Assembly: GCF_900240945.1 (NCBI RefSeq)
Contig: NZ_OESG01000014.1
Coordinates: 1,594,015 to 1,658,014, forward strand
DNA: 64,000 nucleotides
DNA from: Mycobacterium sp. 3519A
GTDB lineage: Bacteria; Actinomycetota; Actinomycetes; Mycobacteriales; Mycobacteriaceae
Direction of reading: 5' to 3'
Shown: positions 15,353-30,480 of the stretch, one piece after another
How the letters are laid out: every line of letters begins with the position of its first letter
Numbering within the stretch: the first letter of the stretch is position 1
Notes under the pieces: generated by a model
Database searches by the model: none
Seen by the model: the letters and a program-made list of their open reading frames with translations, nothing else
Told to the model about the DNA's origin: nothing
Translations under genes and position numbers: made by a program

Positions 15353-16584
15353 CCAACCGAAACGTGGACGACGGACTCGTTCTCGTCGTCGGGCCTGGAG
15401 ATCGATTCCTTTCGGGCGTGAGCTACATCGCGGCCATGCAGACTGGAGCACTCGCCGAACGGGGACCCGCTGCGACGCTGCTGTTGCGTCGGCTCTGCCC
15501 TCGCGTGTTCTATCCCGGCCGGGCGCGCGTGGGCAGCACCGACGGCGCTCTGTCGTGGCCCGATATCCCCGTCTTCAACGGGCTGGACTGGTTCTGGGGG
15601 CTGTCGGCCCTTCGCGCATGGCGCTTTTGGCGTCGAGTTCGGCCCAGCGTGGTGGTCCTGCACTGGTGGACCGCGACAGTGCTGCACAGCTACGTGGCCC
15701 TCGCGTGGCTGGCCAAACGGTCGGGGGCGCATGTGGTCGTGGAGTTCCACGAGGCGCAAGACGTCGGTGAGGCCACCTTGCCGCTGGTCGGTCGTTACAC
15801 CAGGGCGGGGATGCGCCTGCTGCTGAACCGGGTGGACGCCGTCACTGTGCATTCCGAATTCGACCGGGTTGCGCTTCGGGCCACCTATCCGCAACTCGCC
15901 AGTCTGCCAAGCGAAGTCGTCACGATCGGCCCGTTCGGCAATCACGTTGCGTCCGGTGTCGCAGCCGCCCGCAACGAAGGCAAGCCGCCGGATGACCCGG
16001 TCCGCTTGCTCATCTTCGGAGTGGTGCGCCCGTACAAGGGACACAGTGAGCTTGCCGAGGCGGCCCGCCTGCTCAGGGCCACCGGGGTCGACGTACATGT
16101 CACTGCGGTGGGTGAAGTCTGGCAGGGCTACCGGCAACCGCTCGACGAACTGGCGGCAGTCCTGCCGCCGGACCGATTGACCATTGTCGACCGCTTCGTC
16201 GACGACGATGAGGTGCCCGCGTACTTCGCAGCGACGGATCTCGTTGTCCTTCCCTACCGCCGCAGCTCGGCATCGGGGCCGTTGCTCACCGCGATGGCCT
16301 GGGGCCTGCCGGTCGTGACCACCGCGGTAGGCGGGCTCGTCGAGGCTTCCGCGGGTTACAGCGGCGCGGTATTGGTGCCGCCCTGTGACCCGAAGGCTCT
16401 TGCCGACGGAATCCGCTCGGCGCTGCCGCTGATCGGGACCACGCATGTCGACCCGAACTCGTGGGCGCAGACCGCCGAGGAGTACACGGGCCTGTTCGAT
16501 CGGATCGGCGCGCGCTGGGGCCGGGACCGGCGCAGTGCGACTCTGCAGAGGGCGGACGACAGCGTGGCGGGGGGCATCGCATGA
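15349..16584 (+). CDS. Family 4 glycosyltransferase
   Basis: The 411-residue protein has a GT-B fold. The C-terminal donor half contains LLIFGVVRPYKGHSELAEAA and a glycine- and proline-containing loop (PYRRSSASGPLLTAMAWGLP) typical of GT4. The usual E-x7-E motif is altered: the first acidic position is replaced by Ser/Ala. Its GTG start overlaps the upstream stop (GTGA) and its stop overlaps the next ATG (ATGA). It is probably cytosolic and adds one sugar of the glycan repeat. Donor unknown. Confidence 0.85.
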   Translation: MTNRNVDDGLVLVVGPGDRFLSGVSYIAAMQTGALAERGPAATLLLRRLCPRVFYPGRARVGSTDGALSWPDIPVFNGLDWFWGLSALRAWRFWRRVRPSVVVLHWWTATVLHSYVALAWLAKRSGAHVVVEFHEAQDVGEATLPLVGRYTRAGMRLLLNRVDAVTVHSEFDRVALRATYPQLASLPSEVVTIGPFGNHVASGVAAARNEGKPPDDPVRLLIFGVVRPYKGHSELAEAARLLRATGVDVHVTAVGEVWQGYRQPLDELAAVLPPDRLTIVDRFVDDDEVPAYFAATDLVVLPYRRSSASGPLLTAMAWGLPVVTTAVGGLVEASAGYSGAVLVPPCDPKALADGIRSALPLIGTTHVDPNSWAQTAEEYTGLFDRIGARWGRDRRSATLQRADDSVAGGIA

Positions 16585-17717
16585 CCGATACCGCACTGCG
16601 GGTCGGGCTCATCATCCCCCGCTTCGCGCCGTACCTGGGTGGTGCCGAGACTTACGCCGCGCAGGCTGCCGCGGCGCTGGCGGCCAAGGGTGCCGAGGTC
16701 ACCGTGATCACTCAGATTCCGCGTCGCGCAACGCTTTCCGCGCGGGATCGACAAGACGGATACAACATCGAGCGGTACGACCTGCCGGTGGGTGAAGTCT
16801 TCGATCTGCCTTCACCGGCCGCAGCGGGCACCGCCCGGCAGTCCCGGCGCTTCGACGTCGTATGGGTGCACAGCTACCACACCCCGTTGGCCTGGCTGGC
16901 CGCCGAGCAGGCGAAGGCGCCGGTGGTGCTCACCCCGTGGTACCACGGCGCCGGACATACCCCGATGCGCAATGCGATGCACCGGTTCTACCGCCCCGCA
17001 GGCCGACGACTGATGGCGGCGTGCCGCCGAATTCTGGTGGCCACCCAGGCCGAAGCGGATCTGGTCATGCGGGACTTCTCGCGACAGGTGGACAGCGACA
17101 AGATAAGCCTTGCCCCCGTTGGGGTTCCCGATCCGGTGGGCGGCCGGACCCCGTACCCCGGCCAATCGAACGTTGTGCTGACCGTCGCCCGCCAAGAGCC
17201 GTACAAGCGCACGGATGTGTTGATCCGCGCCGTCGCCCACCTTCGCGACAACGGTGTGCCGGCGCGACTCGTTGTCGTGGGGCAAGGTTCCGGTTTGGCG
17301 GCCTACCGGGAACTCGCCACCGCACTCGACGCCGATGACGTGGTGACGTTCACCGGCGCAATCGACGACGAGGCGCTCGGCCGGTGGTGGGCGACGGCCT
17401 CGCTCTACGCGACGGCAAGCCTCCACGAGGCCTTCGGCCTGTGCCTGGGTGAGGCGCTCGTGACGGGTCTGCCTGTCGTCGCAAGCGGTATCGGCGCGCA
17501 TCGTGAAGTGATTCGCCGAGCCGGGCCCGGCGCGGCGGCGGCTTTGTGCGAATTGGACGGCGAAAGCGCGGATTCCGTGTTGCAGTACGCCGACGCGATT
17601 GCCCGACTGCTTCGTTCGACTGGGTCACGCAAGGCGCGTGCGGCGCAGTGCACGCTGCCGACCGAAGACGAGATGGTCAACCATCTTCTGAAGACGCTCA
17701 GCGCGGCGAGATCGTGA
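16581..17717 (+). CDS. Family 4 glycosyltransferase
   Basis: The 378-residue GT-B enzyme shows an N-terminal LIIPRFAPYLGGAETYA acceptor-domain start. The C-terminal GT4 signature is VVLTVARQEPYKRTDVLIRA and then ASLHEAFGLCLGEALVTGLP, with the E-x7-E pair present (HEAFGLCLGEA). The ATG at 16581 overlaps the previous stop, giving translational coupling. The protein has no membrane helix. It is the second GT4 of the operon. Confidence 0.9.
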   Translation: MTDTALRVGLIIPRFAPYLGGAETYAAQAAAALAAKGAEVTVITQIPRRATLSARDRQDGYNIERYDLPVGEVFDLPSPAAAGTARQSRRFDVVWVHSYHTPLAWLAAEQAKAPVVLTPWYHGAGHTPMRNAMHRFYRPAGRRLMAACRRILVATQAEADLVMRDFSRQVDSDKISLAPVGVPDPVGGRTPYPGQSNVVLTVARQEPYKRTDVLIRAVAHLRDNGVPARLVVVGQGSGLAAYRELATALDADDVVTFTGAIDDEALGRWWATASLYATASLHEAFGLCLGEALVTGLPVVASGIGAHREVIRRAGPGAAAALCELDGESADSVLQYADAIARLLRSTGSRKARAAQCTLPTEDEMVNHLLKTLSAARS

Positions 17718-17724
17718 GCCGACG

Positions 17725-19722
17725 GTGACTGCCACTTCAGAGATCCCAGACACCGCGGTAAGCCAGCCACCCGACGACTTCCATTACGCGCCAGCGCAAT
17801 CCGGTAAGTCCCGGTGGCGCGACCGCAGAGTTGCCGCTGTGCTGCTGCCGCCCATCGGAGCGGTCCTGCTCTCGCTGTCCTTTCATCATGCCGCGGGTTT
17901 GACCCAGCCCGACCAATTACAGTTCGCGCTTTTCTGGGCGGGGTTTCTGGCGGGTATGCTGCCGCTGGTCGCTCTTGCCTGCGCCATCCACATCGACGGT
18001 GCGACGCGGACGTGGGCGCTCGCGGGTATCGGCTTCTTCGGAATGGTTCCGCGCCTTCTGCAGCCCGGCCCGGCAGGGCCCGACGAGTTCGCGCATACAC
18101 GGCAGGCATTGGAGGCGTTTCTTGCCGGCGACGTCGGCCACACCAATTACCTGCTGCCGATCACCAAGGAATTCCCCGGCCTGCATCAAGCGGCCGGTGC
18201 TTTCGCCCGGTTGACGGGACTGTCGCTCTGGCCTGCCGCGCTCATCGTGATCGTGCTCGCACACATTCTGTCGGTGCTCGCGATCTATCAACTGGTCCGT
18301 ATGGTGGGTGCGCCCGCCAGGGGCGCTGCGGTCGGCGCTGTTGTGTACACGCTCAATCCCTCTTGGCTGTACTTCAATTCGGTGTTCTCCTACGAGACAC
18401 TGGCACTGCCGTTGCTCATCTGGTGCTTGGCGGCAACCGTCGCGGCTAGTCGCGCATCGCACAAGCTCAACCGGCGCGCCTTCGCGATGGCGATGTTGTG
18501 CGTGGTCGTTCTGCCGGTCGTTCACCACTTGAGCACGACCATGCTTTTCCTCATCCTGATTCTGCTCGTCCTCGCGCGCCTGCTGCCGTTCGTCAGGCAG
18601 ACAGCGGCACAGGGACGGCGTGCGGAGGGTGAGCGATTCTGGCCTCTGGTCTTCATCCTGGGCGCTCTGGTGGTTTCGATCACCTTCTGGTGGTCGGGAC
18701 TGTCCAGCAGGCTCCTTGCTTACCTCGGCCCAGAACTGGCCCGCGGGTTCATGCAGCTGCAGAAGATGATGGACGGGGTGGGCCAGTCGTCCGGGCGACG
18801 CTCACTGTTTGCGAACTCCTTGAATCCCGGCTATGAGATCGTCTGCGGCTACCTGTTCCCATTCGTGTTGTTGGCGCTGTTCATGTGGTCCATGGCGGTG
18901 CTGTGGCGAAACCGGCGCCGGATCGGCTCGATGCCGTGGGCCTTCGCCGTGCTGGGCGCGATGTTCTTCGCGAGCCTGCCGCTGCTGATGACCGGCGGCG
19001 CGGAAGGGGCGCATCGGTCATGGGGATTCAGCTTCATCGGAATCGCGGTGGTGTGCGGTCTCGCGTGGTCCTTCGGTCACCAGCGCCAAGGCGACGAGGG
19101 TGCCGGTCGGTGGCGTCCGGTCCGCAGGGTGTTGGGCCGACCCGGCGTCGCGGTCGGTGTCATTGGGGTCCTGTTCACCGTGTTGGCCGTCGGAAGCGCG
19201 GCAGTGGGTGTCAAGGTCACGCATCGCTTCCCTGGCAGTGCTCTCGTGGGTGACGACGGCCGATCGGTGTCGAGAGACAGTGTGGCGGTTGCCGAATGGT
19301 TGGCGGCCAACGCGCCTGTCGACACCGCGGTGATGACGGATCGGTTCAGTTCGCTGGCGATTGGGTCGCTCGGTCGGATGGCCACGCTGCGTCCCAGTGC
19401 CTCGTTCCCGATCTGGGACTTCTACGCCAATCCCGCACCGATACGCCTGGAAGTCCTCAAGCAACTGTTCGACGCCAAAATCAGATACATCGTCGTTGAT
19501 TCCCGGATGGCGACCACGCGGCCTGTGCTCGGAATCTGGTTCACCCGAGAAGAGCCCGGCGCCCGCGGCAAGGACCCGTACCCGCAAGCGGCCATCGACC
19601 GGTTCAACTGTCTGCCCTGGCTGAACGCCGTTTACGCAGCCGGTCCGCTGACGGTCTACCAAGTGAACATCTTCACGTTGTATCGCACACGTGCCACTAG
19701 TTGTGAGGGAGCGGGCGCATGA
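17725..19722 (+). CDS. Large polytopic membrane protein, GT-C-like candidate
   Basis: The 665-residue protein has about a dozen predicted membrane helices and a soluble C-terminal domain of about 170 residues that should face outside. The first large loop after helix 3-4 contains GPAGPDEFAHTRQALEAF; an Asp-Glu pair in this place is where GT-C transferases keep their catalytic acid. That makes a lipid-linked-sugar-using glycosyltransferase likely, but a polymerase or ligase is also possible. It starts at a GTG 7 bases after the GT4 gene and overlaps the next ATG by 4 bases. Confidence 0.75.
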   Translation: MTATSEIPDTAVSQPPDDFHYAPAQSGKSRWRDRRVAAVLLPPIGAVLLSLSFHHAAGLTQPDQLQFALFWAGFLAGMLPLVALACAIHIDGATRTWALAGIGFFGMVPRLLQPGPAGPDEFAHTRQALEAFLAGDVGHTNYLLPITKEFPGLHQAAGAFARLTGLSLWPAALIVIVLAHILSVLAIYQLVRMVGAPARGAAVGAVVYTLNPSWLYFNSVFSYETLALPLLIWCLAATVAASRASHKLNRRAFAMAMLCVVVLPVVHHLSTTMLFLILILLVLARLLPFVRQTAAQGRRAEGERFWPLVFILGALVVSITFWWSGLSSRLLAYLGPELARGFMQLQKMMDGVGQSSGRRSLFANSLNPGYEIVCGYLFPFVLLALFMWSMAVLWRNRRRIGSMPWAFAVLGAMFFASLPLLMTGGAEGAHRSWGFSFIGIAVVCGLAWSFGHQRQGDEGAGRWRPVRRVLGRPGVAVGVIGVLFTVLAVGSAAVGVKVTHRFPGSALVGDDGRSVSRDSVAVAEWLAANAPVDTAVMTDRFSSLAIGSLGRMATLRPSASFPIWDFYANPAPIRLEVLKQLFDAKIRYIVVDSRMATTRPVLGIWFTREEPGARGKDPYPQAAIDRFNCLPWLNAVYAAGPLTVYQVNIFTLYRTRATSCEGAGA

Positions 19723-20831
19723 GCGATCTGACGACTCGCACCATCGACGCCGATACCGTCGCTACCGGCTACGACGACACGCCGGATCGGACGGCGCGGC
19801 TACGGCTGCTCATCGCGTCGGCTATCGGCGTCGCGTTGCTCTTCGTCGCCCATTGGCTTGCACCACAACAGGATTCGTTGGTAGCGGCACCGGCCGGTGC
19901 GGTCGGGTGGATTGCGGTGATCTGCGGAGTTGTCGGGGTCTGGTTGGTCCCGGGGCTGTGGATCTCTGCGGTGTTGGTGCGTCTCGGGGTCGGGCCGGTG
20001 GGATGGATCGGCACCCGGATCGCGACGACGCTCGCCTGGTATGCGGCAGTGGGTCCCGTCATACACCACGTCGGCAGGGCAACCGTGGTGACCACCCTCG
20101 GCATCCTCACTGTGACGACGGCAGCGACAGCCGCGGTTTCGCTCGGTGTCGCGTTCGGATTGTCGCAGCGGCCCACTGGACGGTGGCGGCGCTCCGTCGT
20201 TGCCGTGGTCGCCGGCGGCGGTTGTGCCCAGATCGCGCTGTGGGTTTCGCGGTTGTGGATCGACGAGGCGCCTTATATGCGCAACGTCGTCCTGGACGTG
20301 GTCATCGTGCTCGCCGGGGCGCTGCTGGTGGTCGCGGGGGCGCTGAGCAGTCCCCAACTGCCACCGAGAATGTCCGCCCGAGACATCCGGACCACCCTGA
20401 TTGCGCTGGCAGCCATCGCATTGACTGCCGTGGCGTTGACGGTGGTGAACGCGAACTGGTCGCCCGCACAACGCATGCCGTCGTCCTTCGCCGCCGAGCA
20501 GATCCCCGCGCCTGCAGGTGCCGACCTGGCGTTGTCCTTGACCGCACTCGGTCCAGATGGACCAGAAATGGTCCGGCGCGCTGATTTCAGTGCCTACGAC
20601 ATCACCGGTCGTCCTGTTCCCGTCGACACCCGGCTGGTACTGACTGACGGCACGGGAGAACGAGTGACGCTGCTTGTCGAGCTGCCGCGCAGCAGCCAGG
20701 CTCAGTTGTGCGGGCCCAAGCAGCTGGAGCTCGCCCGCACCGCCGGCGCGCCGATCAAACTGACCATGCGGGACAACGCGTCCGACATGACTCTGCAGGC
20801 GGTCATTCCGATCGGGTGGTGCACAGGATGA
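19719..20831 (+). CDS. Polytopic membrane protein with extracytoplasmic C-terminal domain, unknown
   Basis: The 370-residue protein has about seven hydrophobic helices (residues about 27-245). A soluble C-terminal domain of about 120 residues follows and has two cysteines (QAQLCGPKQL and IPIGWCTG). I do not recognise a family. Its start and stop both overlap neighbours by 4 bases (ATGA). That places it within the glycan operon, between the GT-C-like protein and the flippase, so a partner role in export or polymerisation is plausible. Confidence 0.7.
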   Translation: MSDLTTRTIDADTVATGYDDTPDRTARLRLLIASAIGVALLFVAHWLAPQQDSLVAAPAGAVGWIAVICGVVGVWLVPGLWISAVLVRLGVGPVGWIGTRIATTLAWYAAVGPVIHHVGRATVVTTLGILTVTTAATAAVSLGVAFGLSQRPTGRWRRSVVAVVAGGGCAQIALWVSRLWIDEAPYMRNVVLDVVIVLAGALLVVAGALSSPQLPPRMSARDIRTTLIALAAIALTAVALTVVNANWSPAQRMPSSFAAEQIPAPAGADLALSLTALGPDGPEMVRRADFSAYDITGRPVPVDTRLVLTDGTGERVTLLVELPRSSQAQLCGPKQLELARTAGAPIKLTMRDNASDMTLQAVIPIGWCTG

Positions 20832-22162
20832 CGACTACCCGTCCACGGACCACCCGAGGTATGGTGGCCAACAGCATCGCTCTTCTTGCGATGAACCACC
20901 TCACCTCGTTGCTCGGCTATGTGTTCTGGGTGATCTGCGCGCGCAGTGTCGACGCCGGGGTTGTCGGTGTCTCCAACACGGTGATCGGCGGGATGACGCT
21001 GGTCGGGATCGTGTCGGTCGCCGGATTCATACCGTTGCTTCCGCGGGTGCTGCCTGGTGCCAGCTCCGAAGAGCGTAATGGGCTGTGCAGCACCGCGTTT
21101 GTCGTCGCCGTCGTCATCTCGGGCGCGGCGGGCGCAGTGGGCGCGCTTGTGCTGCCGGACTCAGTGCAAGCTGCGCTCGGCACGGGATGCCTCGTCGCAC
21201 TGATGGTCGCGGGCTCGGTGGGCACCGCCCTGATGCTTGTGATCAACGGGGCGTTGCTCGGCGTTCGCCGGGCTGAGCTCTCGCTGGTCGGCAGCATCGT
21301 CGGTGCGTTGTCACGGCTGGCGGCCGTCGCAGTGTTTCTACCGTTGGCGGTGGTCACGGTCGGAGCCGACACCGATTCCGCGCGCGTGATTCTGTTCGGC
21401 TGGGTTGCTTCGCTGATGCTGAACTTCGTGCTGTCGCTGCGGCTGTTCGTGCGTGCGACGACGGACTTCCATTTCCGCCCCAGGCGCATCTGGCTGTCGC
21501 GACTACGACAACTGGTGCCGTGGGACTACGTCGCCACGATTGCGGTCAGGGCACCCTTCTATCTGGTGCCCATCATCGCCGCCGCGTACTTCCCGCCCGA
21601 CCAGGTCGCATACCTGTCGATGGCGGCGATGATCAGCACCGCGTTCTTCGCGGTGAACGCCGCGGTGTCCAACGCGCTGCTGGCAGACTGCGCCGACCGC
21701 CCGGATCGACTTCGATCACAAGCGCGCCGCGCCCTCGGGCTGATCGGCGTACTGCTGATCCCCGCGATGGCCATCACCTGCTTGCTGGCTCCGCAAATCC
21801 TTGGCATCTTCGGCGCGGATTACGCCGAGCACAGCACCCTGCTGGTGATCGGGTTGATGTCCACCCTCCCAGATGCGTTGGTGAACGTGGCCGTCGCAGT
21901 GCTGCGCGTGCAGCGCCGACTGAGGGCTGTCGCTGTCATCAGCGTGTCCGGAGCATCGATCGGCATCGGTGTGTCGGCGCTGCTGATGCCGCATCTCGGC
22001 ATCATCGGCGCGGCCTGGGCCGCGCTCGCCTCACCGACGGTCGTCGTCGCCGCGTTGGCTGCGATGGGCTTCTTTCGATGGCTGATCAACGTCCGCGCGG
22101 CGGCCAGCGCCGCCCGATTGCGCGCCAGCGTCATCGAGGAACCGGCGATGGGACTTCCATGA
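20828..22162 (+). CDS. Polysaccharide flippase (Wzx/MOP superfamily)
   Basis: This 444-residue protein has 12-14 predicted membrane helices and the overall pattern of MOP/PST exporters that flip lipid-linked oligosaccharides across the inner membrane. It begins MVANSIALLAMNHLTSLLGY. Characteristic spots are FWVICARSVDAGVVGVSNTV in the first helices and a positively charged loop near the middle (RPRRIWLSRLRQLVPWD). It is coupled to both neighbours by 4-base overlaps. A Wzx-type role fits the glycosyltransferases around it. Confidence 0.85.
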   Translation: MTTTRPRTTRGMVANSIALLAMNHLTSLLGYVFWVICARSVDAGVVGVSNTVIGGMTLVGIVSVAGFIPLLPRVLPGASSEERNGLCSTAFVVAVVISGAAGAVGALVLPDSVQAALGTGCLVALMVAGSVGTALMLVINGALLGVRRAELSLVGSIVGALSRLAAVAVFLPLAVVTVGADTDSARVILFGWVASLMLNFVLSLRLFVRATTDFHFRPRRIWLSRLRQLVPWDYVATIAVRAPFYLVPIIAAAYFPPDQVAYLSMAAMISTAFFAVNAAVSNALLADCADRPDRLRSQARRALGLIGVLLIPAMAITCLLAPQILGIFGADYAEHSTLLVIGLMSTLPDALVNVAVAVLRVQRRLRAVAVISVSGASIGIGVSALLMPHLGIIGAAWAALASPTVVVAALAAMGFFRWLINVRAAASAARLRASVIEEPAMGLP

Positions 22163-23496
22163 CTGGTCTGCGCATCCTGCACGCAACGGACACCTTCCTG
22201 CCGAACGTCGGCGGGCTCGAATTGTCCACTGCGGCATTGGCGCGCGCCCAAGCGAACCGGGGGCAGCCGGTCGCTGTGGCCACGCCCCGACATCCGCACG
22301 CACCCCGACGAGAAGATCTCGACGGTGTGCAGGTGCACCGGCTGCCGATGGCGATGGCGCACGTGCCGGGCGCCTACGCGGACCCCACCCACCTCTTCTT
22401 TCCACCGGTTCCGGATCCGTTGTTCACCCGCGGGTTCGCCAACCTCGTCAACGATTTCTCCCCGGACGTGATCCACGCCCGGGGATGGATTCTCTATAGC
22501 GTGCTGGGCGCCGCCCGACGCGCAGGCATCCCCGTGGTCGCGAGCGCGCATGATCACAGTCACGTCTGCGCCACGAAAATCATGTTGTACCACGGCCAGC
22601 ACCTCTGTTCGGGACCCGCGTTGGGCAAGTGCGTGAGCTGCGCGCGTTCCCACTACGGGCTCAAGGGAATTCCGCTGGCACTGGGGCTGCACCAGCTGGG
22701 TTCGAGGCGGCACCGTGAGGTCGCCGAATGGACGGCGATCTCGACCGCGCTCGCTGACCGTGGTACTGCGCCCCGGGTCGAGGACCACAGCGCAGTCACC
22801 GTGATACCGACGTTCATCGATGACGATCTGCTCGCGTTGGCCAGCGACGAGCGCACCGCGTGCCGTCCTGAATTCGTGCCTGCCACAGGGCCTTACCTGT
22901 TCTACGCGGGAGTGCTGGGGGCGTTCAAGGGTGTCGATGTACTGCTCGACGCGCACGCTCGACTGCGCGCCGATGGCCTGGACGTGCCGTTGGTGCTCGC
23001 AGGACTTCCGCGCGCCGACTATCGGGTACCGGACCAGCCGGGCGTGGTTGTCGTGCACAATGTCCCGCGGCCCGCGGTCATCGCGGCGTGGCGACATGCC
23101 GCGGTGGGTGTCGTGCCGAGTCTGGTGCCTGAAGGATTCGGCAGGGTGGCGGTGGAATGCCTTGCGGCAGCGACACCGTGTGTGGTCACTGCGCTCGGCG
23201 GTCTGCTGGACGTGGTCACCGACGGGGTCGACGGTCTGCACGTGCCGCCGGGCGACGCCGCGGCGCTGGCTCGCGCCATCCGAAAACTCCTAGCGGACGA
23301 GGGGCTGCGATCGCGGCTCGCCGCGGCAGGCCCCGCCAAGGCGGCCGGCTTCACGTTGTCACGGGTCCTGCCCCGACTCGACGAGGTGTACGGCCGGGCT
23401 GTCGACAATGGGCCGGCCGGTCGGGCGGCTGGACGGAAAGCACTGTCGCTCAGGCGAATGGCACAACCGGTTGGGAGCACGGGGGGTAGCCGATGA
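22159..23496 (+). CDS. Family 4 glycosyltransferase with N-terminal cysteine cluster
   Basis: The 445-residue GT-B protein starts LRILHATDTFLPNVGGLELS and has the GT4 donor-site motif SLVPEGFGRVAVECLAAATP with the E-x7-E pair. An insert at about 125-165 carries one His-Asp-His group and four cysteines (HDHSHVCATK, HLCSGPALGKCVSCARSH). This pattern occurs in a GT4 subgroup and may bind metal. Start and stop overlap neighbours by 4 bases. It is the third GT4 in the operon. Confidence 0.9.
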   Translation: MTGLRILHATDTFLPNVGGLELSTAALARAQANRGQPVAVATPRHPHAPRREDLDGVQVHRLPMAMAHVPGAYADPTHLFFPPVPDPLFTRGFANLVNDFSPDVIHARGWILYSVLGAARRAGIPVVASAHDHSHVCATKIMLYHGQHLCSGPALGKCVSCARSHYGLKGIPLALGLHQLGSRRHREVAEWTAISTALADRGTAPRVEDHSAVTVIPTFIDDDLLALASDERTACRPEFVPATGPYLFYAGVLGAFKGVDVLLDAHARLRADGLDVPLVLAGLPRADYRVPDQPGVVVVHNVPRPAVIAAWRHAAVGVVPSLVPEGFGRVAVECLAAATPCVVTALGGLLDVVTDGVDGLHVPPGDAAALARAIRKLLADEGLRSRLAAAGPAKAAGFTLSRVLPRLDEVYGRAVDNGPAGRAAGRKALSLRRMAQPVGSTGGSR

Positions 23497-24284
23497 CGAC
23501 TTCGACCACTGAAGGCTCGTCGAAGAGCGCTGATATGACGGCGATTCCGCTGGTGTTGATGTACCACTCGGTGTCGCCATACGACGAAGACCCGTTTGAG
23601 GTGACCATGACCCCGCAGCGGTTCGAGCGGCATATGCGCTGGCTGCGTAACCGAGGTCTGCGGGGCGTCTCGATGGCGGAGTTGCTCAACGCATCCGAAA
23701 AGGGCCATGCGCGTCGCATGGTGGGGCTGACCTTCGACGACGGCTACCAGGACTTCATCGACAACGCGATGCCGGTCCTTCAGAAGTACGGATTCTCCGC
23801 CACGATGTTCGTGCTCGCAGGACGGCTGGGTGGGGAGAACGAGTGGAGCAGGCCGGGACCGTGCAAGCCTCTGCTGACCGCCAGCCAGGTGCGCGAAATA
23901 GCAAGTGATGGAATCGAAGTCGCTTCCCATGGATTGGAACACGTGTCTCTGCTCAAGGCCGACGATGCGCAGTTGCGGGCCGAGACCGCGCGCAGCCGAA
24001 CTATTCTCGAAGAGCTGGTCGGCCAACCGGTAAGGGGATTCGCCTATCCGTACGGTGACTCGGATGCGCGGGTTGTCGCGGCGACGCAGGCCGCGGGCTA
24101 TCAGTACGCATGCGCGGTGACACCGTGGTCGGGTATCGGCCGCTACGCGATACCGCGAACCGCGGTCTTCGAACACGACACCTCATGGCGATTGGATGCG
24201 AAGCGGATGGTGTCGGCCGTGACCGTCGGCAACCGCTTCGGTGTGCGGCGATACCAGGGGGGTGAGCCATGCGCGTCGCGGTAG
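23493..24284 (+). CDS. NodB-type polysaccharide deacetylase, apparently cytosolic
   Basis: The 263-residue protein carries the carbohydrate esterase 4 motifs. The first is TFDDGYQDF with Asp82-Asp83, the second is SHGLEHVSL with His146 and His150, and a later FAYPYGDSD motif follows. These bind a metal and remove N- or O-acetyl groups from sugars. There is no signal peptide or membrane helix, so it may act on a lipid-linked intermediate on the cytoplasmic side. It overlaps the upstream gene by 4 bases and the downstream dehydrogenase gene by 16. Confidence 0.88.
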   Translation: MTTSTTEGSSKSADMTAIPLVLMYHSVSPYDEDPFEVTMTPQRFERHMRWLRNRGLRGVSMAELLNASEKGHARRMVGLTFDDGYQDFIDNAMPVLQKYGFSATMFVLAGRLGGENEWSRPGPCKPLLTASQVREIASDGIEVASHGLEHVSLLKADDAQLRAETARSRTILEELVGQPVRGFAYPYGDSDARVVAATQAAGYQYACAVTPWSGIGRYAIPRTAVFEHDTSWRLDAKRMVSAVTVGNRFGVRRYQGGEPCASR

Positions 24285-25525
24285 TCGGACAGGGATACGT
24301 CGGCCTGCCGCTGGCCGTGCGGGCCGCGCAGGTCGAGCACGACGTGATCGCATACGACATCGACGAGGCCAGGATCAAGCGGCTGCTTTCCGGCCAGTCC
24401 TACATCGAGGACATCAGCGACGCCGACCTCGGTGCTCTCCTCGAAGCGGGGACCCTGCATCCGTCGTGCGAGGCACGTGCGTGCGCAGGCTTCGACGTCG
24501 CGGTCATCGCCGTGCCCACGCCACTGCGGGAAGGCGTGCCGGATCTGCGCTACATCGAACAGGCTTCGCGCATGCTCGCCCGCTTCCTTCGGCCGGGGGC
24601 GACGGTCGTCGTGGAGTCGACAACGTATCCGGGTACCACCCAGGAATTGGTCGCGCCGATTCTCGAGGACGGTTCGGGCCTGGTCGCCGGTGTGGACTTT
24701 CATCTGGGCTACAGTCCCGAGCGCATCGATCCGGGCAACGCCACCTGGACCCTCATCAACACGCCGAAGATCGTGTCTGGCGTCGATGGGGCGTCGTTGG
24801 CGGCGGTCCAGTCGTTCTACGACACGCTGGTCGAGAAGACCATCGCCGTGAGCTCGCCGCGGGAGGCGGAGTTGGCCAAACTCCTGGAGAACACCTTCCG
24901 CCACGTCAACATCGCATTGGTCAACGAGGTCGCGATGTTCGCCCACGAACTCGGCATCGACGTGTGGGAGGCGATCGACGCCGCGTCCACGAAGCCGTTC
25001 GGGTTCATGCGGTTCACACCTGGCCCAGGGGTGGGCGGGCACTGTCTGCCGATCGATCCCTCGTATCTGTCGTGGCGCGTCGAGCGGGTACTCGGCCACA
25101 ACTTCCGCTTCGTCGAACTCGCCAACGACATCAACGGGCACATGCCCGATCATGTCGTGCACCGAATCGTGATGGGCCTCAACGCCAGACGCCGGGCCGT
25201 CAACGGTTCGCGCATCCTGCTACTGGGTTTGTCGTACAAGAAGAACACCGGAGACGCTCGCGAGTCGCCTGCGGTGCGCGTCGCCCAACTGCTGGTCGAG
25301 ATGGGCGCACAGGTGCACGGGGCCGATCCGTACATCGTCGAAGAGACCCCCGTGGACGGTCTGCTGTGTCGGGTCGACGTGACGCCCGAGGAGCTGGCGG
25401 CCGCCGATGCCGTCGTGCTGCTGGCCGACCACGACGAGTTCGATCTCGACGACATCGTCGCGCACGCGAGGTTCATTCTCGACTGTCGGCACCGGTTGAC
25501 CGGTCCTCATGTGGAGTACCTATGA
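24269..25525 (+). CDS. Nucleotide-sugar dehydrogenase (UDP-glucose/UDP-ManNAc type)
   Basis: The 418-residue enzyme is of the UDPGDH family and converts a nucleotide hexose to its uronic acid by two NAD-dependent oxidations. Visible are the Rossmann motif VGQGYVGLPLA (6-16), the KLLENTFR helix, and catalytic Cys259 in PGPGVGGHCLPIDPSYL. The C-terminal LGLSYKKNTGDARESPA is also present. The GHCLPIDP form is common in WecC-like enzymes. It implies that the glycan contains a uronic acid, so it is acidic. Confidence 0.9.
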   Translation: MRVAVVGQGYVGLPLAVRAAQVEHDVIAYDIDEARIKRLLSGQSYIEDISDADLGALLEAGTLHPSCEARACAGFDVAVIAVPTPLREGVPDLRYIEQASRMLARFLRPGATVVVESTTYPGTTQELVAPILEDGSGLVAGVDFHLGYSPERIDPGNATWTLINTPKIVSGVDGASLAAVQSFYDTLVEKTIAVSSPREAELAKLLENTFRHVNIALVNEVAMFAHELGIDVWEAIDAASTKPFGFMRFTPGPGVGGHCLPIDPSYLSWRVERVLGHNFRFVELANDINGHMPDHVVHRIVMGLNARRRAVNGSRILLLGLSYKKNTGDARESPAVRVAQLLVEMGAQVHGADPYIVEETPVDGLLCRVDVTPEELAAADAVVLLADHDEFDLDDIVAHARFILDCRHRLTGPHVEYL

Positions 25526-25526
25526 C

Positions 25527-26396
25527 ATGACCGACCTTCGCACCTCCACCGTCGAAGCCAAGCCCATCACCGATGCCGATACCTGGGCGGTGGCCGAATT
25601 CTTGCGGCGGGAAAGGTCACTGAAAATGTCAGTGGCCGACTGGCATCGGTACATGGTGACGCCGGGGCATTTCGAGCAACCCAACCACGGCTACCTGCTG
25701 CGTGAGAACGATCGTGTCGTCGGCGCGTATCTCGCCCTGTACTCCGAGCGGGTGATCGACGGCCGTCGCCATTCGATCTGCAACCTGGGGCTGTGGTGTG
25801 TCGCCCCGGAACATCGTGCGCATGGCCTTCGGCTGTTGAGGTCGTTACTTCGCCAGAAGGGATACACGTTCACGGATCTGACGCCGAACCAGAATGTCGT
25901 AGCGCTGAATTCTCGGGTCGGCTTCACCGAACTCGACACCACAACGGCTGTGGTCCCCAACATGCCGTGGCCGTTCCCTTCGAAGAAGGTGCGAGTGGTG
26001 GACGCACCCGACGAGATCGACGGATTGCTTCCGGAAAAGGAGCGATCGATCTATCGCGACCACGCCGCGACGGCGGTCCACCACGTCGTGCTCTCTAGCG
26101 AGAACCGGGCCTGCTACGTGATGTTTCGACGGGAACGGCGCAAGCGCATGCGCGTGTTCGCATCGATCCTCTATGTCAGCAACCCCGACCTCTTTCGGGA
26201 GTGCGCGTCGCACTTCTATCGATACTTGCTGCTGCGCCACAGGATCTGCGCGACGCTGGCCGAGATCAGGGTGGTCAAATACCGGCCGAAGTTGGCCGTG
26301 ACCGTAGCCGGCTGGCCGAAGATGTACCTCAGCGAGGATCTGCAGCCCGCCCAGATCGACTACCTCTACAGTGAATTGGTTTGCCGCTCATGGTGA
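25527..26396 (+). CDS. GNAT-like acyltransferase
   Basis: The 289-residue protein has an N-terminal GNAT-like part: substrate strands up to LGLWCVAPEHRAHGLRLLRS (acyl-CoA loop like) and FTDLTPNQNVVALNSRVGF. A second, less clear domain follows, with a basic stretch FRRERRKRMR. The ATG at 25527 is 1 base after the dehydrogenase stop, and the stop overlaps the next ATG by 7 bases. It could transfer an acyl or aminoacyl group to the glycan. The donor might be the acyl carrier protein of this operon rather than CoA; that is inference. Confidence 0.7.
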   Translation: MTDLRTSTVEAKPITDADTWAVAEFLRRERSLKMSVADWHRYMVTPGHFEQPNHGYLLRENDRVVGAYLALYSERVIDGRRHSICNLGLWCVAPEHRAHGLRLLRSLLRQKGYTFTDLTPNQNVVALNSRVGFTELDTTTAVVPNMPWPFPSKKVRVVDAPDEIDGLLPEKERSIYRDHAATAVHHVVLSSENRACYVMFRRERRKRMRVFASILYVSNPDLFRECASHFYRYLLLRHRICATLAEIRVVKYRPKLAVTVAGWPKMYLSEDLQPAQIDYLYSELVCRSW

Positions 26397-27964
26397 TCGA
26401 CGAACATCCCGATGGTAGGAAGGTGAATCTCCATCACCTCGTCGAAGAACGTGCGCGGTCGCATCCCGATTTGCCTGCGCTGACCTTCAAACAGCAGACG
26501 CTCACCTACGGGGCGCTGTGGAACCAGGTCAGGGAGGTCGCCGCCGGTCTTGCTGCGCTGGGTGTGGGCTCTGGCCAGCGTGTCGCCTTGTTCCTCGACA
26601 AGAGGATCGAGACGGTGACGGCGATGTATGGTGCGTCGGCGGCGGGCGCTGCGATCGTGCCGATCAATCCCCTGCTCCGTCCTGCACAGGTCGGACACAT
26701 CCTGCGGGACTGCGAAGTTCGGGTTCTCGTCACATCGCGCGAGCGGTTGTCCCTGATGCGCGACGAGCTGGCAGCATGCCCGTCGATCGAACACGTCGTG
26801 CTCGTCAGCGCGCCGATCGACGAGCCAGATGTGCACGCGCATTACGCAATACACGATTGGGAGCGGGTGCGCGGGCCAGTACAGGCGCTGCCCACCTCGA
26901 ATGTGTCCGAGCGCGATCTTGCCGTCATCATCTACACCTCGGGAAGCACGGGTAAGCCGAAGGGCGTCATGCTCAGCCACGGCAACGCGCTGGCCACCAG
27001 CATGCAGTCGTACCTCGGCAACACCTCCGACGACGTGATCCTCGTTGCGCTGCCGTTGAGCTTCGATGCCGGTTTCAGCCAGTTGACGCTGGCCTTCGCC
27101 GCGGGCGCGCACGCGATCCTGATGAACTACCTGCTTCCCGGTGACGTGCCGCGGTTGTGCGCCAAGCACGGCGTGACCGGCATTACCTGCGTGCCTCCGC
27201 TGTGGAGCCAAATCGTCGAGCAGAAATGGCCGGAGGAAGCGAAGGCGTCGCTGCGCTACTTCGGGACGACCGGCGGACGGATGCCCAAGACCATCCTGGA
27301 GAAGTTGCGCGAGCTGTTCCCGTCGGCGACGCCGTTCTTGATGTACGGGATGACCGAGGCATTCCGGTCGACCTACCTCGATCCGGCAGAAGTCGACCGC
27401 AGGCCCGACTCCATCGGGAAGACCGTTCCCACTGCCGAAATCCTGGTGGTGCGCCATGACGGGTCGCCGTGCGACCCGGGCGAGGAGGGCGAACTGGTCC
27501 ACCGCGACGGACCGCATATCGCCCTCGGCTATTGGAACGATCACGAGCGCACGGCGGAGCGTTTCCGGCCGGTTCCTGGCTTGGATGGACTTGCGGTCTG
27601 GTCGGGCGACAGGGCGATCACCGACGACGAAGGCTTCATCTACTTCATCGGACGCAGGGACTGGATGATCAAGACGTCCGGCTACCGGATCAGCCCGACG
27701 GAGGTGGAGGAGGTCGCTTACGCGACGCGGTTGGTGCGCGATGCGGTGGCATTCGGCGTCGACGATGAGACTCTCGGGCAGCGCGTCCGCCTGGTAGTCG
27801 CGCCAGCTGTGACGGAGTTCGACCCAGATGTCCTGATCAAGGAGATGAAGGCGCAGTTGCCGCTGTACATGGTGCCCAGCTCAGTCGTCGTACTGGATGC
27901 GTTGCCTCGCAATCCCAATGGCAAGTTCGACAGGGCGTTTTTGCGCGAGGAGTTCGGAACGTGA
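26390..27964 (+). CDS. AMP-forming acyl/amino-acid ligase of the exosortase-A-associated type
   Basis: The 524-residue member of the ANL superfamily activates a carboxylate as an adenylate and usually passes it to a thiol. The phosphate loop YTSGSTGKPKGV is at 182-193, with YGMTEAF, the hinge-side GYRISPTEVEE and the C-terminal lysine in PRNPNGKFDR also present. Gene order ligase, PLP decarboxylase and ACP is the one known beside exosortase A loci (the TIGR03098/TIGR03099 pair). No exosortase is present here. The likely acceptor is the ACP encoded at 30220. Substrate unknown. Confidence 0.87.
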   Translation: MVIDEHPDGRKVNLHHLVEERARSHPDLPALTFKQQTLTYGALWNQVREVAAGLAALGVGSGQRVALFLDKRIETVTAMYGASAAGAAIVPINPLLRPAQVGHILRDCEVRVLVTSRERLSLMRDELAACPSIEHVVLVSAPIDEPDVHAHYAIHDWERVRGPVQALPTSNVSERDLAVIIYTSGSTGKPKGVMLSHGNALATSMQSYLGNTSDDVILVALPLSFDAGFSQLTLAFAAGAHAILMNYLLPGDVPRLCAKHGVTGITCVPPLWSQIVEQKWPEEAKASLRYFGTTGGRMPKTILEKLRELFPSATPFLMYGMTEAFRSTYLDPAEVDRRPDSIGKTVPTAEILVVRHDGSPCDPGEEGELVHRDGPHIALGYWNDHERTAERFRPVPGLDGLAVWSGDRAITDDEGFIYFIGRRDWMIKTSGYRISPTEVEEVAYATRLVRDAVAFGVDDETLGQRVRLVVAPAVTEFDPDVLIKEMKAQLPLYMVPSSVVVLDALPRNPNGKFDRAFLREEFGT

Positions 27965-29187
27965 CGGCGCGGACAATGATTGCGGCGTTCGGCAGCATCG
28001 ACGGTCAGCTGGCCGTTGGCGGGATGCCACTGGAACGGCTCACGGCACGCGTGGGCTCCACCCCCTATTTCGCTTATGATCGGCGGCTGCTGACCGACCG
28101 GATCGACGTACTGCGGGCTACGTTGCCGCCCACCGTGAAGTTCAGTTATGCGGTGAAGGCGAACCCGATGCCTGCGGTGCTGCAACACCTCTCGGGTCTC
28201 GTCGACGGCATGGACGTCGCCTCGACGACCGAGATGCAGAACGCCCTCGATACCGGACTCCCGGCTCGCGCAATAAGTTTCGCGGGACCGGGTAAGACGG
28301 AGGCCGAGATCGTCCAGGCGGTCGCGGCGGGCGTCACCATCGAGATGGAATCCGTGGCCGAAGCCCAGCGAGTGATCCGCGCCGGCGACATGCTCGGCAT
28401 CCGACCGCGTGCCGCGGTACGGGTGAATCCCGACTTCCAGGTGAAAGGGTCAGGCATGCGGATGGGCGGCGGGCCGCAACAGTTCGGCGTCGACGCCGAG
28501 CAAGTGCCGGACTTTCTTGCCGATCTGGCCGCCGCGGACCTGGATTTCGTCGGCTTCCACGTGTTTCCGGGATCGCAGAACCTCAACGCCGAGATCCTGT
28601 GTGGGGCGCAGCGTCAGACCGTCGAGTTGATCATCGCGCTGGCCGAGAAGGCGCCTGCGCCAGTGCAGTACATCAACCTCGGTGGTGGGTTCGGCATCCC
28701 GTATTTCGACAAGGACGCCCCGCTCGACCTGTCCGCTATCGGAGCCAATCTCGCTGAGTTGATCGACAACAGAATCTCACCGAACCTGCCCGACGCCGAG
28801 GTCGTGATCGAACTCGGGCGCTACATCGTGGGGGAGTGCGGTGTGTATGTGACGCGGGTGGTCGACCGCAAGGTTTCGCGCGGTCGCACCTATCTCGTGG
28901 TCGATGGCGGGCTGCATCACCAGATGGCCGCCTCAGGAAACTTTGGTTCGGTCATCCGCCGGAACTATCCGATTGCCGTCGGTAACCGCTTGATTGAACC
29001 GGCCGGCGGTCCGGTGACCGTCGTGGGTTGCCTCTGCACTCCGCTTGACCTGTTGGGCGACGAGGTCATGCTTCCCGACGCGCGGATAGGCGACCTCATC
29101 GTCTTGTTCCAGGCAGGCGCTTACGGGTTGACGGCAAGTCCGACAGCATTTCTCAGCCACCCGTCCCCAGTCGAAGTGCTTGTGTAG
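27961..29187 (+). CDS. Fold-III PLP-dependent decarboxylase (DAP/ornithine decarboxylase type)
   Basis: The 408-residue enzyme has an alanine-racemase-like barrel and a C-terminal beta domain. Lys66 in FSYAVKANPM should bind PLP. Glycine-rich phosphate binding is at INLGGGFGIPYF, and VVGCLCTPLDLLG carries the cysteine used across the dimer in this family. Family members decarboxylate diaminopimelate, lysine, ornithine or arginine. Members paired with an AMP ligase and ACP have no proven substrate to my knowledge. It overlaps the ligase by 4 bases, so the two are translated together. Confidence 0.88.
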   Translation: MTARTMIAAFGSIDGQLAVGGMPLERLTARVGSTPYFAYDRRLLTDRIDVLRATLPPTVKFSYAVKANPMPAVLQHLSGLVDGMDVASTTEMQNALDTGLPARAISFAGPGKTEAEIVQAVAAGVTIEMESVAEAQRVIRAGDMLGIRPRAAVRVNPDFQVKGSGMRMGGGPQQFGVDAEQVPDFLADLAAADLDFVGFHVFPGSQNLNAEILCGAQRQTVELIIALAEKAPAPVQYINLGGGFGIPYFDKDAPLDLSAIGANLAELIDNRISPNLPDAEVVIELGRYIVGECGVYVTRVVDRKVSRGRTYLVVDGGLHHQMAASGNFGSVIRRNYPIAVGNRLIEPAGGPVTVVGCLCTPLDLLGDEVMLPDARIGDLIVLFQAGAYGLTASPTAFLSHPSPVEVLV

Positions 29188-29222
29188 GCGCACCGGCGGG
29201 GCGCAAAAGGAGAGACCGATCG

Positions 29223-29255
29223 ATGAACTTCAGCCACAGCGGGGACGCTACGTGA
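29223..29255 (+). other. Possible 10-codon leader ORF resembling the start of the ACP gene
   Basis: An ATG at 29223 has a good AAGGAG ribosome site 9 bases upstream and opens MNFSHSGDAT, ending in TGA at 29253-29255. That stop overlaps the GTG chosen for the next gene (GTGA). The bases TCGATGAACTTCAGCCA match the start region of the ACP gene (TCGATGAGCTTCAGCCA, from 30217) at 16 of 17 positions. It may be a translational-coupling leader or a leftover of a duplicated ACP start. Expression is unproven. Confidence 0.4.
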
Positions 29256-30223
29256 ACGCCATCAAGGAGCTCCGAAGGACCGGGCAGCTGTCCCGAGAGG
29301 ACCTGGAAAGAACCCGACTCTACAAGTTCGCCGGGAAGATCTACCATCGCGGCCTGATCGGGTCCCGAACACGACTCGAATACCGGTGGCGGTACCTCAG
29401 CAGGAAGTTGGCAGGCACCAGCCTCGGCAAGACCATCCTGTGCTACCCCGATACTCCCGACCATTCGCAGCTGCTCTACAAAATCTGTAATTTCTTGGGC
29501 TGCAAGATGACTGATTCGATCACATCACGGCCGGACCTGATCATCGCCTTCGAAGACACCACCAAGCGCGCGCACAGTCCAATCCTCGCCGACCTCGCCG
29601 AGGGCCACCGCGTGGTGAATCAAGGATGCGACGACATCAGCAAGATCAAGGTGGAGAGCGTATTCCGCGACGTCTTCGGATACGGGACCTTCGTCGATCC
29701 CGAAGCGCACCAAGGGCTATGCGTGATGAAGTCGAATGCGAATGCGATGCATGACGGCCAACTGGTCGAATGCCCCATCATCGCGGCGCGTAGCGGCGTC
29801 ATCTATCAGAGACTGATCAACAACGCCGCAGACGACGAGGTGCTCGACATTCGGGTTCCCATCATCGGCACCGACATTCCATTCGTGTATCTGAAATACC
29901 GCAGTCTGCGATCGCGATTCAGCAACAAGAACACCCGGGTCACCATGAGTGCCGTCGACGCGGTTTTCACCAGCGACGAGGTAGCGAAGATAAAGCGGTT
30001 CGCGGACGAACTCGGTTTGGGCTTCGGCGAACTCGACATCCTCAGAGATGTTGACGACGGTGACATCTACATAGTCGACGTGAACAACACTCCCTGTGGG
30101 CCCCCGAATCATCTGTGCAAGGAGGAAAGTCGGCGAGCAGTGCAGATCTTGAGTCATAGCTTCGACACGCAGTTTCTCACCAGCTCCAATCGACGAGACG
30201 CCGACGGAAGGGACGTTCGATGA
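29252..30223 (+). CDS. ATP-grasp-like protein of the ligase/decarboxylase/ACP cassette
   Basis: The protein has 323 residues from the GTG at 29252. The C-terminal third ends FGELDILRDVDDGDIYIVDV followed by NNTP, which looks like the metal- and ATP-binding end of ATP-grasp ligases (acidic residue, then Asp-x-Asn-x-x-Pro). The middle is weaker and the family call is tentative. ATP-grasp enzymes join a carboxylate to an amine or thiol. It sits between the PLP decarboxylase (64 bases away, or coupled through the leader ORF) and the ACP (4-base overlap). A TTG at 29180 is another possible start. Base composition is a little lower in GC than upstream genes. Confidence 0.65.
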   Translation: MNAIKELRRTGQLSREDLERTRLYKFAGKIYHRGLIGSRTRLEYRWRYLSRKLAGTSLGKTILCYPDTPDHSQLLYKICNFLGCKMTDSITSRPDLIIAFEDTTKRAHSPILADLAEGHRVVNQGCDDISKIKVESVFRDVFGYGTFVDPEAHQGLCVMKSNANAMHDGQLVECPIIAARSGVIYQRLINNAADDEVLDIRVPIIGTDIPFVYLKYRSLRSRFSNKNTRVTMSAVDAVFTSDEVAKIKRFADELGLGFGELDILRDVDDGDIYIVDVNNTPCGPPNHLCKEESRRAVQILSHSFDTQFLTSSNRRDADGRDVR

Positions 30224-30480
30224 GCTTCAGCCAAGACACACTCGATCGCGTGAAGGTCGTGATCGCGAAGACTCTCGGAATTCAGGATCGGGCCGACCGA
30301 CTCGAGGACACCACTGAATTGTTCGGCAGCATGCCGGAACTGGATTCGATGTCGGTGGTCGCACTTGCAGTCAATCTGGAACGGGAGTTCGATTTCGAGA
30401 TAGACGACGAGGCCTTCACCGGAGAGGTCTTCGAGACGATCGGAACGTTGGCGGAGTTCGTCGACCAACGCAAGGGTTAG
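30220..30480 (+). CDS. Acyl carrier protein
   Basis: The 86-residue acidic helical protein is of the phosphopantetheine-carrier family. Ser43 in PELDSMSVVAL is the expected attachment site (DSM in place of the usual DSL). GGAAGGGA lies 9 bases before the ATG. It is the last gene of the glycan operon and overlaps the ATP-grasp-like gene by 4 bases. The presence of its own AMP ligase suggests that it carries an amino acid or a similar acid, not fatty acid intermediates. Confidence 0.9.
   Translation: MSFSQDTLDRVKVVIAKTLGIQDRADRLEDTTELFGSMPELDSMSVVALAVNLEREFDFEIDDEAFTGEVFETIGTLAEFVDQRKG

What the first reader, a model, noticed from the sequence alone, without database searches (positions are those of the whole stretch)
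26390..30480. Exosortase-A-type ligase/decarboxylase/ACP cassette in an actinobacterium, with an ATP-grasp protein and no exosortase
An AMP-forming ligase, a fold-III PLP decarboxylase and an ACP in one translationally coupled unit is the set known from PEP-CTERM/exosortase polysaccharide loci. Here it is joined by an ATP-grasp-like protein and ends a mycobacterial glycan operon. A coherent model is: the ligase loads an amino acid on the ACP, the decarboxylase makes an ACP-bound amine (before or after another amide is formed), and an acyltransferase puts the unit on the glycan. The chemistry of the cassette is not established to my knowledge.
Basis: partly seen in the sequence, partly recalled or inferred. 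Interest (0 to 1): 0.9.

Follow-up and report, generated by a model that had tools for sequence, protein, structure and literature searches.

The report
Beta-alanyl carrier module for glycans (predicted)
A mycobacterium carries a small gene set that probably loads aspartate on a carrier protein, trims it to beta-alanine and hands it to a surface sugar polymer; the same set sits in quite different bacteria, which makes a poorly understood gene family testable.

Summary
Ligase and decarboxylase pass the curated cut-offs of TIGR03098 and TIGR03099, an ACP with a Ser site follows, an ATP-grasp protein lies between, and no exosortase is found in the genome. Two points change the reading. (1) The chemistry can be predicted: over the pocket the ligase matches the VinN entries best, and VinN's Asp230/Ser299/Arg331 align with Asp/Thr/Arg, invariant in 23 of 23 ligases. 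The decarboxylase matches BtrK, not LysA. Relatives load L-Asp on an ACP and decarboxylate it there (PMC12186527, passages). Most likely the cassette makes beta-alanyl-ACP. (2) The core unit is GNAT-ligase-decarboxylase-ACP, also on Sinorhizobium meliloti megaplasmids and an Aureimonas plasmid. The ATP-grasp is an accessory: 4 of the 7 carriers among 396 genus genomes, inserted at the ACP start, and without ligase or decarboxylase in the other 77 of 80 fetched loci. Transfer to the glycan is inferred; substrate and acceptor are untested.

The parts
14474..25525 (+). upstream part of the glycan operon: three glycosyltransferases, two polytopic membrane proteins without Pfam hit, flippase, GT4, polysaccharide deacetylase (23493-24284), NDP-sugar dehydrogenase (24269-25525)
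   Evidence: Pfam/NCBIfam scans; membrane segments
25509..26396 (+). GNAT-like N-acyltransferase, proposed to transfer the ACP-bound unit
26390..27964 (+). AMP-forming ligase (TIGR03098), proposed isoaspartyl-ACP ligase
   Evidence: 686 bits vs cut-off 592; start as in P0241
27065..27067 (+). codon of ligase Asp226, aligned with VinN Asp230
27269..27271 (+). codon of ligase Thr294, aligned with VinN Ser299
27365..27367 (+). codon of ligase Arg326, aligned with VinN Arg331
27961..29187 (+). fold-III PLP decarboxylase (TIGR03099), BtrK-like
   Evidence: 581 bits vs cut-off 478; best solved relative BtrK 241 bits, best entries named diaminopimelate decarboxylase 160, 157 and 141 bits
28156..28158 (+). 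codon of Lys66, expected PLP lysine (role from family knowledge, recalled)
   Evidence: aligned with the KAN lysine of BtrK
29029..29049 (+). CLCTPLD motif, where LysA-like paralogues have HCESGD
29223..29255 (+). 10-codon leader, a decayed copy of the ACP start, overlapping the ATP-grasp start
   Evidence: 19 of 24 bases, 0 of 300 shuffles as good
29252..30223 (+). ATP-grasp protein, accessory, substrate unknown
30220..30480 (+). acyl carrier protein
   Evidence: PF00550 34.1 bits vs 20.8; nearest solved relative 2lki
30346..30348 (+). codon of ACP Ser43 in LDSM, expected phosphopantetheine site
   Evidence: Ser kept in 10 of 10 aligned ACPs, 7 mycobacterial and 3 others

Best explanation
The constant unit is GNAT-ligase-decarboxylase-ACP. 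The ligase activates the side-chain (beta) carboxyl of L-aspartate, or a close relative, as AMP ester and loads it on the ACP phosphopantetheine arm. The decarboxylase removes the alpha-carboxyl on the carrier and gives beta-alanyl-ACP. The GNAT-like enzyme passes the beta-alanyl group to an amine on the glycan, perhaps one freed by the deacetylase of the same operon. The ATP-grasp protein is a later addition that may add a further unit by an amide bond to the carrier-bound or glycan-bound amine. Shown: gene content, family membership, pocket residues, synteny, no exosortase found. Inferred: substrate, product, order of steps, transfer to glycan, role of the ATP-grasp.
For: Ligase pocket: best solved match 3wv4/3wv5/3wvn, 45 bits against 30 for the next; these entries are titled non-ribosomal peptide synthetase, and that they are VinN is recalled, but Asp230, Ser299 and Arg331 (roles in PMC7756342, passages) all fall in place with one numbering offset. 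They align with D/T/R, invariant in 23 of 23 ligases, in all 9 added ones, by motif in L204-L206; the ligase of a true XrtA locus, L207, has D/S/R exactly as VinN. Among 30 AMP-binding loci of the own genome only this ligase shows D,[ST],R; 14 of the 30 had a gap at one or more of the positions. Decarboxylase: BtrK best, CTP motif and no CESGD. PMC12186527 (passages): VinN-type AfcQ loads L-Asp on AfcK and AfcP decarboxylates it there, in vitro; the side-chain carboxyl is argued there from homology and docking. A Burkholderia cluster with ACP, KAS III and acyl-CoA dehydrogenase genes carries a ligase and a decarboxylase over both exosortase-A cut-offs, 700 and 559 bits. Same order GNAT-ligase-decarboxylase-ACP, then glycosyltransferase and deacetylase, on S. 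meliloti RCAM1115; GNAT-domain protein, ACP, ligase and decarboxylase in 6 of 6 loci L165-L170 of another actinobacterial family.
Confidence: 0.55

Rival explanations
1. The ligase loads L-glutamate by its gamma-carboxyl and the decarboxylase makes GABA-ACP, as in butirosin side-chain synthesis.
For: Best solved relative of the decarboxylase is BtrK, L-glutamyl-[BtrI] decarboxylase; BtrK reaction as described in PMC7857480 (passages).
Against: Butirosin uses an ATP-grasp ligase for loading (recalled), not a VinN-type one; the VinN-type residues point to the shorter aspartate skeleton. No VinO or AfcP entry was seen among the solved matches, so BtrK being first says little about chain length.
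Confidence: 0.15
2. The ligase activates an alpha-carboxyl in the ordinary way, for example of diaminopimelate, and the decarboxylase acts at the far end to give lysyl-ACP.
For: Asp226 is also the usual alpha-amine anchor, seen in other amino-acid domains of this genome; decarboxylase fold shared with diaminopimelate decarboxylases.
Against: CTPLD in place of CESGD; Arg at the VinN 331 position is argued to preclude ordinary side-chain placement in AfcQ (PMC12186527, passage).
Confidence: 0.1
3. Decarboxylase is a second lysA and the ligase an ordinary fatty acyl-CoA ligase; the ACP is unrelated.
For: Source databases name many of the listed copies diaminopimelate decarboxylase; the ligase is in the acyl-CoA ligase superfamily.
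Against: lysA score 218.5 under cut-off 297.9; of four further matches in the genome three have CESGD and form a clade of their own; the gene pair stays together with ACP and GNAT across phyla.
Confidence: 0.04
4. The unit makes a beta-alanyl or similar small molecule or lipopeptide, not a glycan decoration.
For: Known VinN-type modules serve polyketides and lipopeptides; the Burkholderia cluster L206 looks of that kind.
Against: No PKS, KAS or NRPS gene among the neighbours scanned here; glycosyltransferases, flippase and deacetylase upstream, and glycosyltransferases and deacetylase beside the S. meliloti and Aureimonas copies.
Confidence: 0.1
5. The ATP-grasp protein is a kinase acting on the glycan or its precursor and has nothing to do with the ACP chemistry.
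Against: RimK, ArgX and LysX rank first by Z, within about 1-2; in mycobacteria it sits between decarboxylase and ACP in 4 of 4 carriers.
Confidence: 0.35

Closest known systems
VinN-VinL-VinO (vicenistatin starter unit) and AfcQ-AfcK-AfcP / BolO-BolC-BolN (lipopeptides)
   Same: Stand-alone adenylation enzyme with Asp, Ser/Thr and Arg in the pocket, free ACP, PLP decarboxylase (BolN is called BtrK-like in PMC7756342)
   Different: Here the unit ends a glycan operon, has a GNAT-like partner and no PKS, KAS or NRPS among the neighbours scanned; ligase and decarboxylase fall in TIGR03098/TIGR03099; substrate not measured
Exosortase A (XrtA) polysaccharide cassette, TIGR03098 plus TIGR03099 plus ACP
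   Same: Both proteins over the curated cut-offs; ACP; deacetylase and glycosyltransferases near; the XrtA ligase of L207 shares the pocket pattern
   Different: No exosortase; GNAT-like partner instead of the FemAB-type one of the Sphingomonas XrtA locus; ATP-grasp added
Butirosin BtrI-BtrJ-BtrK
   Same: ACP, fold-III decarboxylase acting on an ACP-bound amino acid, an ATP-grasp enzyme (BtrJ, recalled)
   Different: Loading here is by an AMP-forming ligase; no sequence of BtrJ was compared
RimK / LysX / ArgX ATP-grasp ligases
   Different: No sequence-level match to any solved chain; second metal ligand is Asp, not Glu (my reading, from recall of RimK)

Membership tests
TIGR03098 ligase | curated cut-off 592.35 bits | tested here: met
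   686.3 bits
TIGR03099 decarboxylase | curated cut-off 478.45 bits | tested here: met
   580.7 bits
Exosortase A / PEP-CTERM system | exosortase (PF09721) in the genome | tested here: not met
   0 of 1 own genome, 0 of 9 genomes of the family incl. own, 0 of 23 phylum carriers; the search does find the exosortase of the Sphingomonas XrtA record, 215 bits
VinN-type beta-amino-acid adenylation enzyme | Asp230, Ser299, Arg331 equivalents | tested here: met
   D226, T294 (Ser to Thr), R326; VinN identity of 3wv4/3wvn recalled, numbering inferred as chain index minus 16, which fits all three
VinN-type beta-amino-acid adenylation enzyme | loads aspartate-type substrate by the side-chain carboxyl | not testable with these tools
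   needs a loading assay
BtrK/VinO-type ACP-substrate decarboxylase | BtrK-like sequence and CTP motif instead of CESGD | tested here: met
   241 bits vs at most 160 for others; CLCTPLD
BtrK/VinO-type ACP-substrate decarboxylase | acts on carrier-bound substrate | not testable with these tools
   needs an assay
LysA, diaminopimelate decarboxylase | TIGR01048 cut-off 297.9 and CESGD motif | tested here: not met
   218.5 bits; CTPLD
Acyl carrier protein | PF00550 cut-off and attachment Ser | tested here: met
   34.1 vs 20.8 bits; LDSM
ATP-grasp superfamily | ATP-grasp fold with metal-binding acidic residues and Asn | tested here: met
   which residues bind metal is from recall
ATP-grasp amide ligases (RimK type) | carboxylate-amine ligase activity | tested here: inconclusive
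   fold matches ligases and inositol kinases alike
GNAT acyltransferases | Pfam GNAT cut-off or confident GNAT fold | tested here: inconclusive
   18.9 vs 25 bits; pLDDT 55 model with mostly acyltransferases among the 50 rows

The most novel reading that the evidence does not exclude
The gene pair filed as exosortase-A associated is really a general beta-alanyl-ACP (or beta-amino-acyl-ACP) generator, and GNAT-fold transferases (GNAT or FemAB type) use this carrier-bound unit to N-acylate amino sugars of surface glycans in mycobacteria, rhizobia and XrtA bacteria: carrier-protein-borne beta-amino-acid decoration of polysaccharides, with an ATP-grasp enzyme extending the unit in some mycobacteria.
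Probability: 0.45. Interest if true: 0.78.

Novelty: new variant of a known kind. Interest (0 to 1): 0.64.

Why it matters
TIGR03098 and TIGR03099 are 'hypothetical equivalog' families named after exosortase A, with no substrate in their names. The pocket residues, the BtrK-like decarboxylase and the Burkholderia cluster over both cut-offs give them a concrete substrate and product to test (Asp to beta-alanine on an ACP). The S. meliloti copy offers a tractable laboratory organism. If right, the name should be uncoupled from exosortase, 'diaminopimelate decarboxylase' labels on such copies corrected, and a route for beta-amino-acid decoration of bacterial surface polysaccharides opened.

Tried and rejected
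Rejected: second lysA; fatty acyl-CoA ligase; exosortase overlooked; ATP-grasp as a fixed member of the set.

Led nowhere: a search for a constant partner of the ATP-grasp outside mycobacteria. The widest neighbour cluster spans 20 of 77 loci (not identified); 32 of 77 loci hold a homologue of one of this operon's glycan genes, 0 of 77 a ligase, decarboxylase, ACP or GNAT homologue at E 1e-4. These counts hold for the stretch held, at most 10 kb each side and less where contigs are short. Structure of the GNAT-like protein from a five-sequence alignment was poor; one solved chain matches its profile, at E 0.71. No solved chain matches the ATP-grasp by sequence at E 1. No BtrJ, VinO or AfcQ sequence was at hand, so none was compared directly; L206 resembles the bolagladin/AFC kind of cluster but was not shown to be either, and its record is not annotated. 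Paper searches, as rows seen of papers found: 20 of 31; 23 of 23; 15 of 133; 15 of 33; 73, 25 of 204 (none of these 25 held the TIGR numbers); 12 of 255; 8 of 8. No row listed named a study of this cassette's chemistry in a glycan locus; that is not proof that none exists. PMC1569441 (passages only) holds no occurrence of ligase, decarboxylase or acyl carrier.

Limits: the own-genome pocket control covered the best 30 of 82 AMP-binding matches, and 14 of these 30 had a gap at one or more positions. Genome counts are samples: 301 family, 396 genus, 396 phylum genomes. On the plasmids exosortase was sought on four records only, not on their chromosomes. In record CP140959 (L204) the ACP match falls in two reading frames; in RCAM1115 it is an annotated ACP, and in SM11 one frame covers it. 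In L166 FemAB matches are only fragments. Gene calls are crude; strand-shadow ORFs replaced some real genes there, which tblastn recovers. From recall, no call: BtrJ being ATP-grasp, VinN as the protein of 3wv4/3wvn, ITPK1 and RimK metal residues, PLP lysine role. Papers: PMC11284099, PMC1569441, PMC7857480, PMC7756342 and PMC12186527 were seen as passages; all others as search listings; the VinN structure paper PMC4223343 is not held.
Full report
What is there. The reported genes are present on the + strand: a ligase (26390-27964), a decarboxylase (27961-29187), an ATP-grasp-like protein (29252-30223) and an ACP (30220-30480). Ligase and decarboxylase pass the NCBIfam cut-offs of TIGR03098 (686 vs 592 bits) and TIGR03099 (581 vs 478), the two families named after exosortase A. 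The ACP passes PF00550 and keeps a serine in an LDSM motif; the Ser is kept in 10 of 10 aligned ACPs. The unit ends an operon with glycosyltransferases, a flippase, a polysaccharide deacetylase and a nucleotide-sugar dehydrogenase. The window lies in a 7.3 Mb genome; by matching coordinates its genus includes Mycolicibacterium vaccae (inferred).

Exosortase. PF09721 finds nothing in the own genome, in 0 of 9 genomes of the family searched, own genome included, and in 0 of 23 other carriers of the phylum sample. The same search finds the exosortase of a Sphingomonas plasmid that holds a real XrtA locus, and none on the S. meliloti, Aureimonas and Burkholderia plasmid records (their chromosomes were not searched). 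The arrangement is not peculiar to this genome: 9 of 120 listed decarboxylases and 11 of 120 listed ligases already carry a Mycobacterium or Mycolicibacterium name with the exosortase-A name.

How common. Over the TIGR03099 cut-off: 1 of 301 family genomes and 2 of 396 phylum genomes (24 of 396 at E 1e-120). An orthologue of this decarboxylase (E 1e-110): 7 of 396 genus genomes. The ATP-grasp: 4 of 396, all four among these seven and next to the decarboxylase.

The ligase. Over its pocket the best solved structures are 3wv4/3wv5 and 3wvn (45 bits; the next, MenE-type, 30). They are titled non-ribosomal peptide synthetase; that they are VinN is recalled. VinN loads 3-methylaspartate on the carrier VinL (PMC11284099, passages). 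Asp230 and Ser299/Arg331 are proposed to hold its amino and alpha-carboxyl groups (PMC7756342, passages). In the alignment these fall on Asp226, Thr294 and Arg326 of the ligase if VinN numbering is the chain index minus 16; the one offset fits all three. The three are invariant in 23 of 23 aligned ligases and in nine more from mycobacteria and other actinobacteria. The ligase of the Sphingomonas XrtA locus has Asp, Ser and Arg, as VinN itself. Among the best 30 of 82 AMP-binding matches of the own genome only this ligase shows the pattern, but 14 of the 30 were gapped at one or more positions, and one of those (L187) has Asp and Arg. Asp alone recurs in other amino-acid domains, so it marks an amino-acid substrate, while Arg and Thr/Ser argue for the VinN-like orientation.

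The decarboxylase. The best solved relatives are the two BtrK entries (241 bits); the best entries named diaminopimelate decarboxylase reach 160, 157 and 141. It shares BtrK's motifs and has CTPLD where three of the four further matches in the genome have CESGD. In a tree those three form a supported clade apart from the TIGR03099 proteins and BtrK; some branches are long and the deep order is not firm.

Known chemistry of the relatives. In vitro, VinN-type AfcQ activates L-Asp and loads it on AfcK, and AfcP decarboxylates it on the carrier towards beta-alanine; that the side-chain carboxyl is used is argued there from homology and docking (PMC12186527, passages). A Burkholderia cluster with ACP, two KAS III and two acyl-CoA dehydrogenase genes and a LuxR-type regulator carries a ligase and a decarboxylase that also pass both exosortase-A cut-offs (700 and 559 bits). 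Hence the families are wider than exosortase loci, and Asp to beta-alanyl-ACP is the best guess here.

The core module. Where a carrier contig reaches far enough (6 of 7 genus carriers), a homologue of the GNAT-like gene 25509-26396 lies with ligase, decarboxylase and ACP. The same order GNAT-ligase-decarboxylase-ACP, with 47, 57, 69 and 53% identity, followed by a glycosyltransferase and a deacetylase, is in S. meliloti RCAM1115; in strain ml45 the ACP match falls in two frames. Aureimonas has GNAT, ligase and decarboxylase in that order and the ACP nearby. In another actinobacterial family 6 of 6 loci read have a GNAT-domain protein, ACP, ligase and decarboxylase, and 3 of 6 a long FemAB match. 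The XrtA locus of Sphingomonas has FemAB and a deacetylase. A GNAT-fold transferase beside the carrier unit is therefore a recurring theme; that it moves the carrier-bound unit to a sugar amine is inferred.

The ATP-grasp protein. AlphaFold2 gives a confident model (pLDDT 91). By Z, RimK, ArgX and LysX rank first (about 17) and inositol-phosphate kinases follow at 15-16; by Foldseek E-value the kinases lead. Ligase or kinase is open. No Pfam or NCBIfam model reaches it, and its relatives match only weakly. In 77 of 80 fetched loci it stands without ligase, decarboxylase or ACP in the stretch held; 32 of the 77 hold homologues of this operon's glycan genes. In three genus carriers the cassette lacks it. 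In the window and in Mycobacterium sp. ACS1612 a copy of the ACP start lies just before it (19 of 24 and 30 of 36 bases, 0 of 300 shuffles as good); in two other species this is not visible (13 of 24 in each, matched by most shuffles). The likely story is insertion into a complete decarboxylase-ACP pair.

Verdict. It is a new variant of a known kind, with a clear, cheap test.

Noticed in passing
window 29223-29255: Decayed copy of the ACP start acts as a 10-codon leader that ends on the ATP-grasp start; in L043 the copy is in frame and forms the ATP-grasp N-terminus.
   Followed up: yes
P0021, P0027, P0039: Proteins of about 600 residues that, read by eye, hold two copies of the ATP-grasp domain in tandem.
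   Followed up: partly
L204, L210, L211 (S. meliloti megaplasmids): GNAT-ligase-decarboxylase-ACP module on symbiotic megaplasmids; 34 of 164 plasmid records with a decarboxylase match are Sinorhizobium.
   Followed up: partly
L165 8356-17865: Three FemAB-like and two GNAT proteins around one ACP-ligase-decarboxylase set in another actinobacterial family.
   Followed up: no
L165 9493-10893: Decarboxylase that scores 298.0 bits against the lysA cut-off 297.9 yet has a CTPLD motif; annotation risk.
   Followed up: no
L044 and L135: A second GNAT-like copy lies on the far side of the cassette in M. vaccae and in genome G504.
   Followed up: no
own genome C12:841790-858196: Open frame of 6121 residues with several carrier and adenylation domains, a large NRPS by its look.
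   Followed up: no
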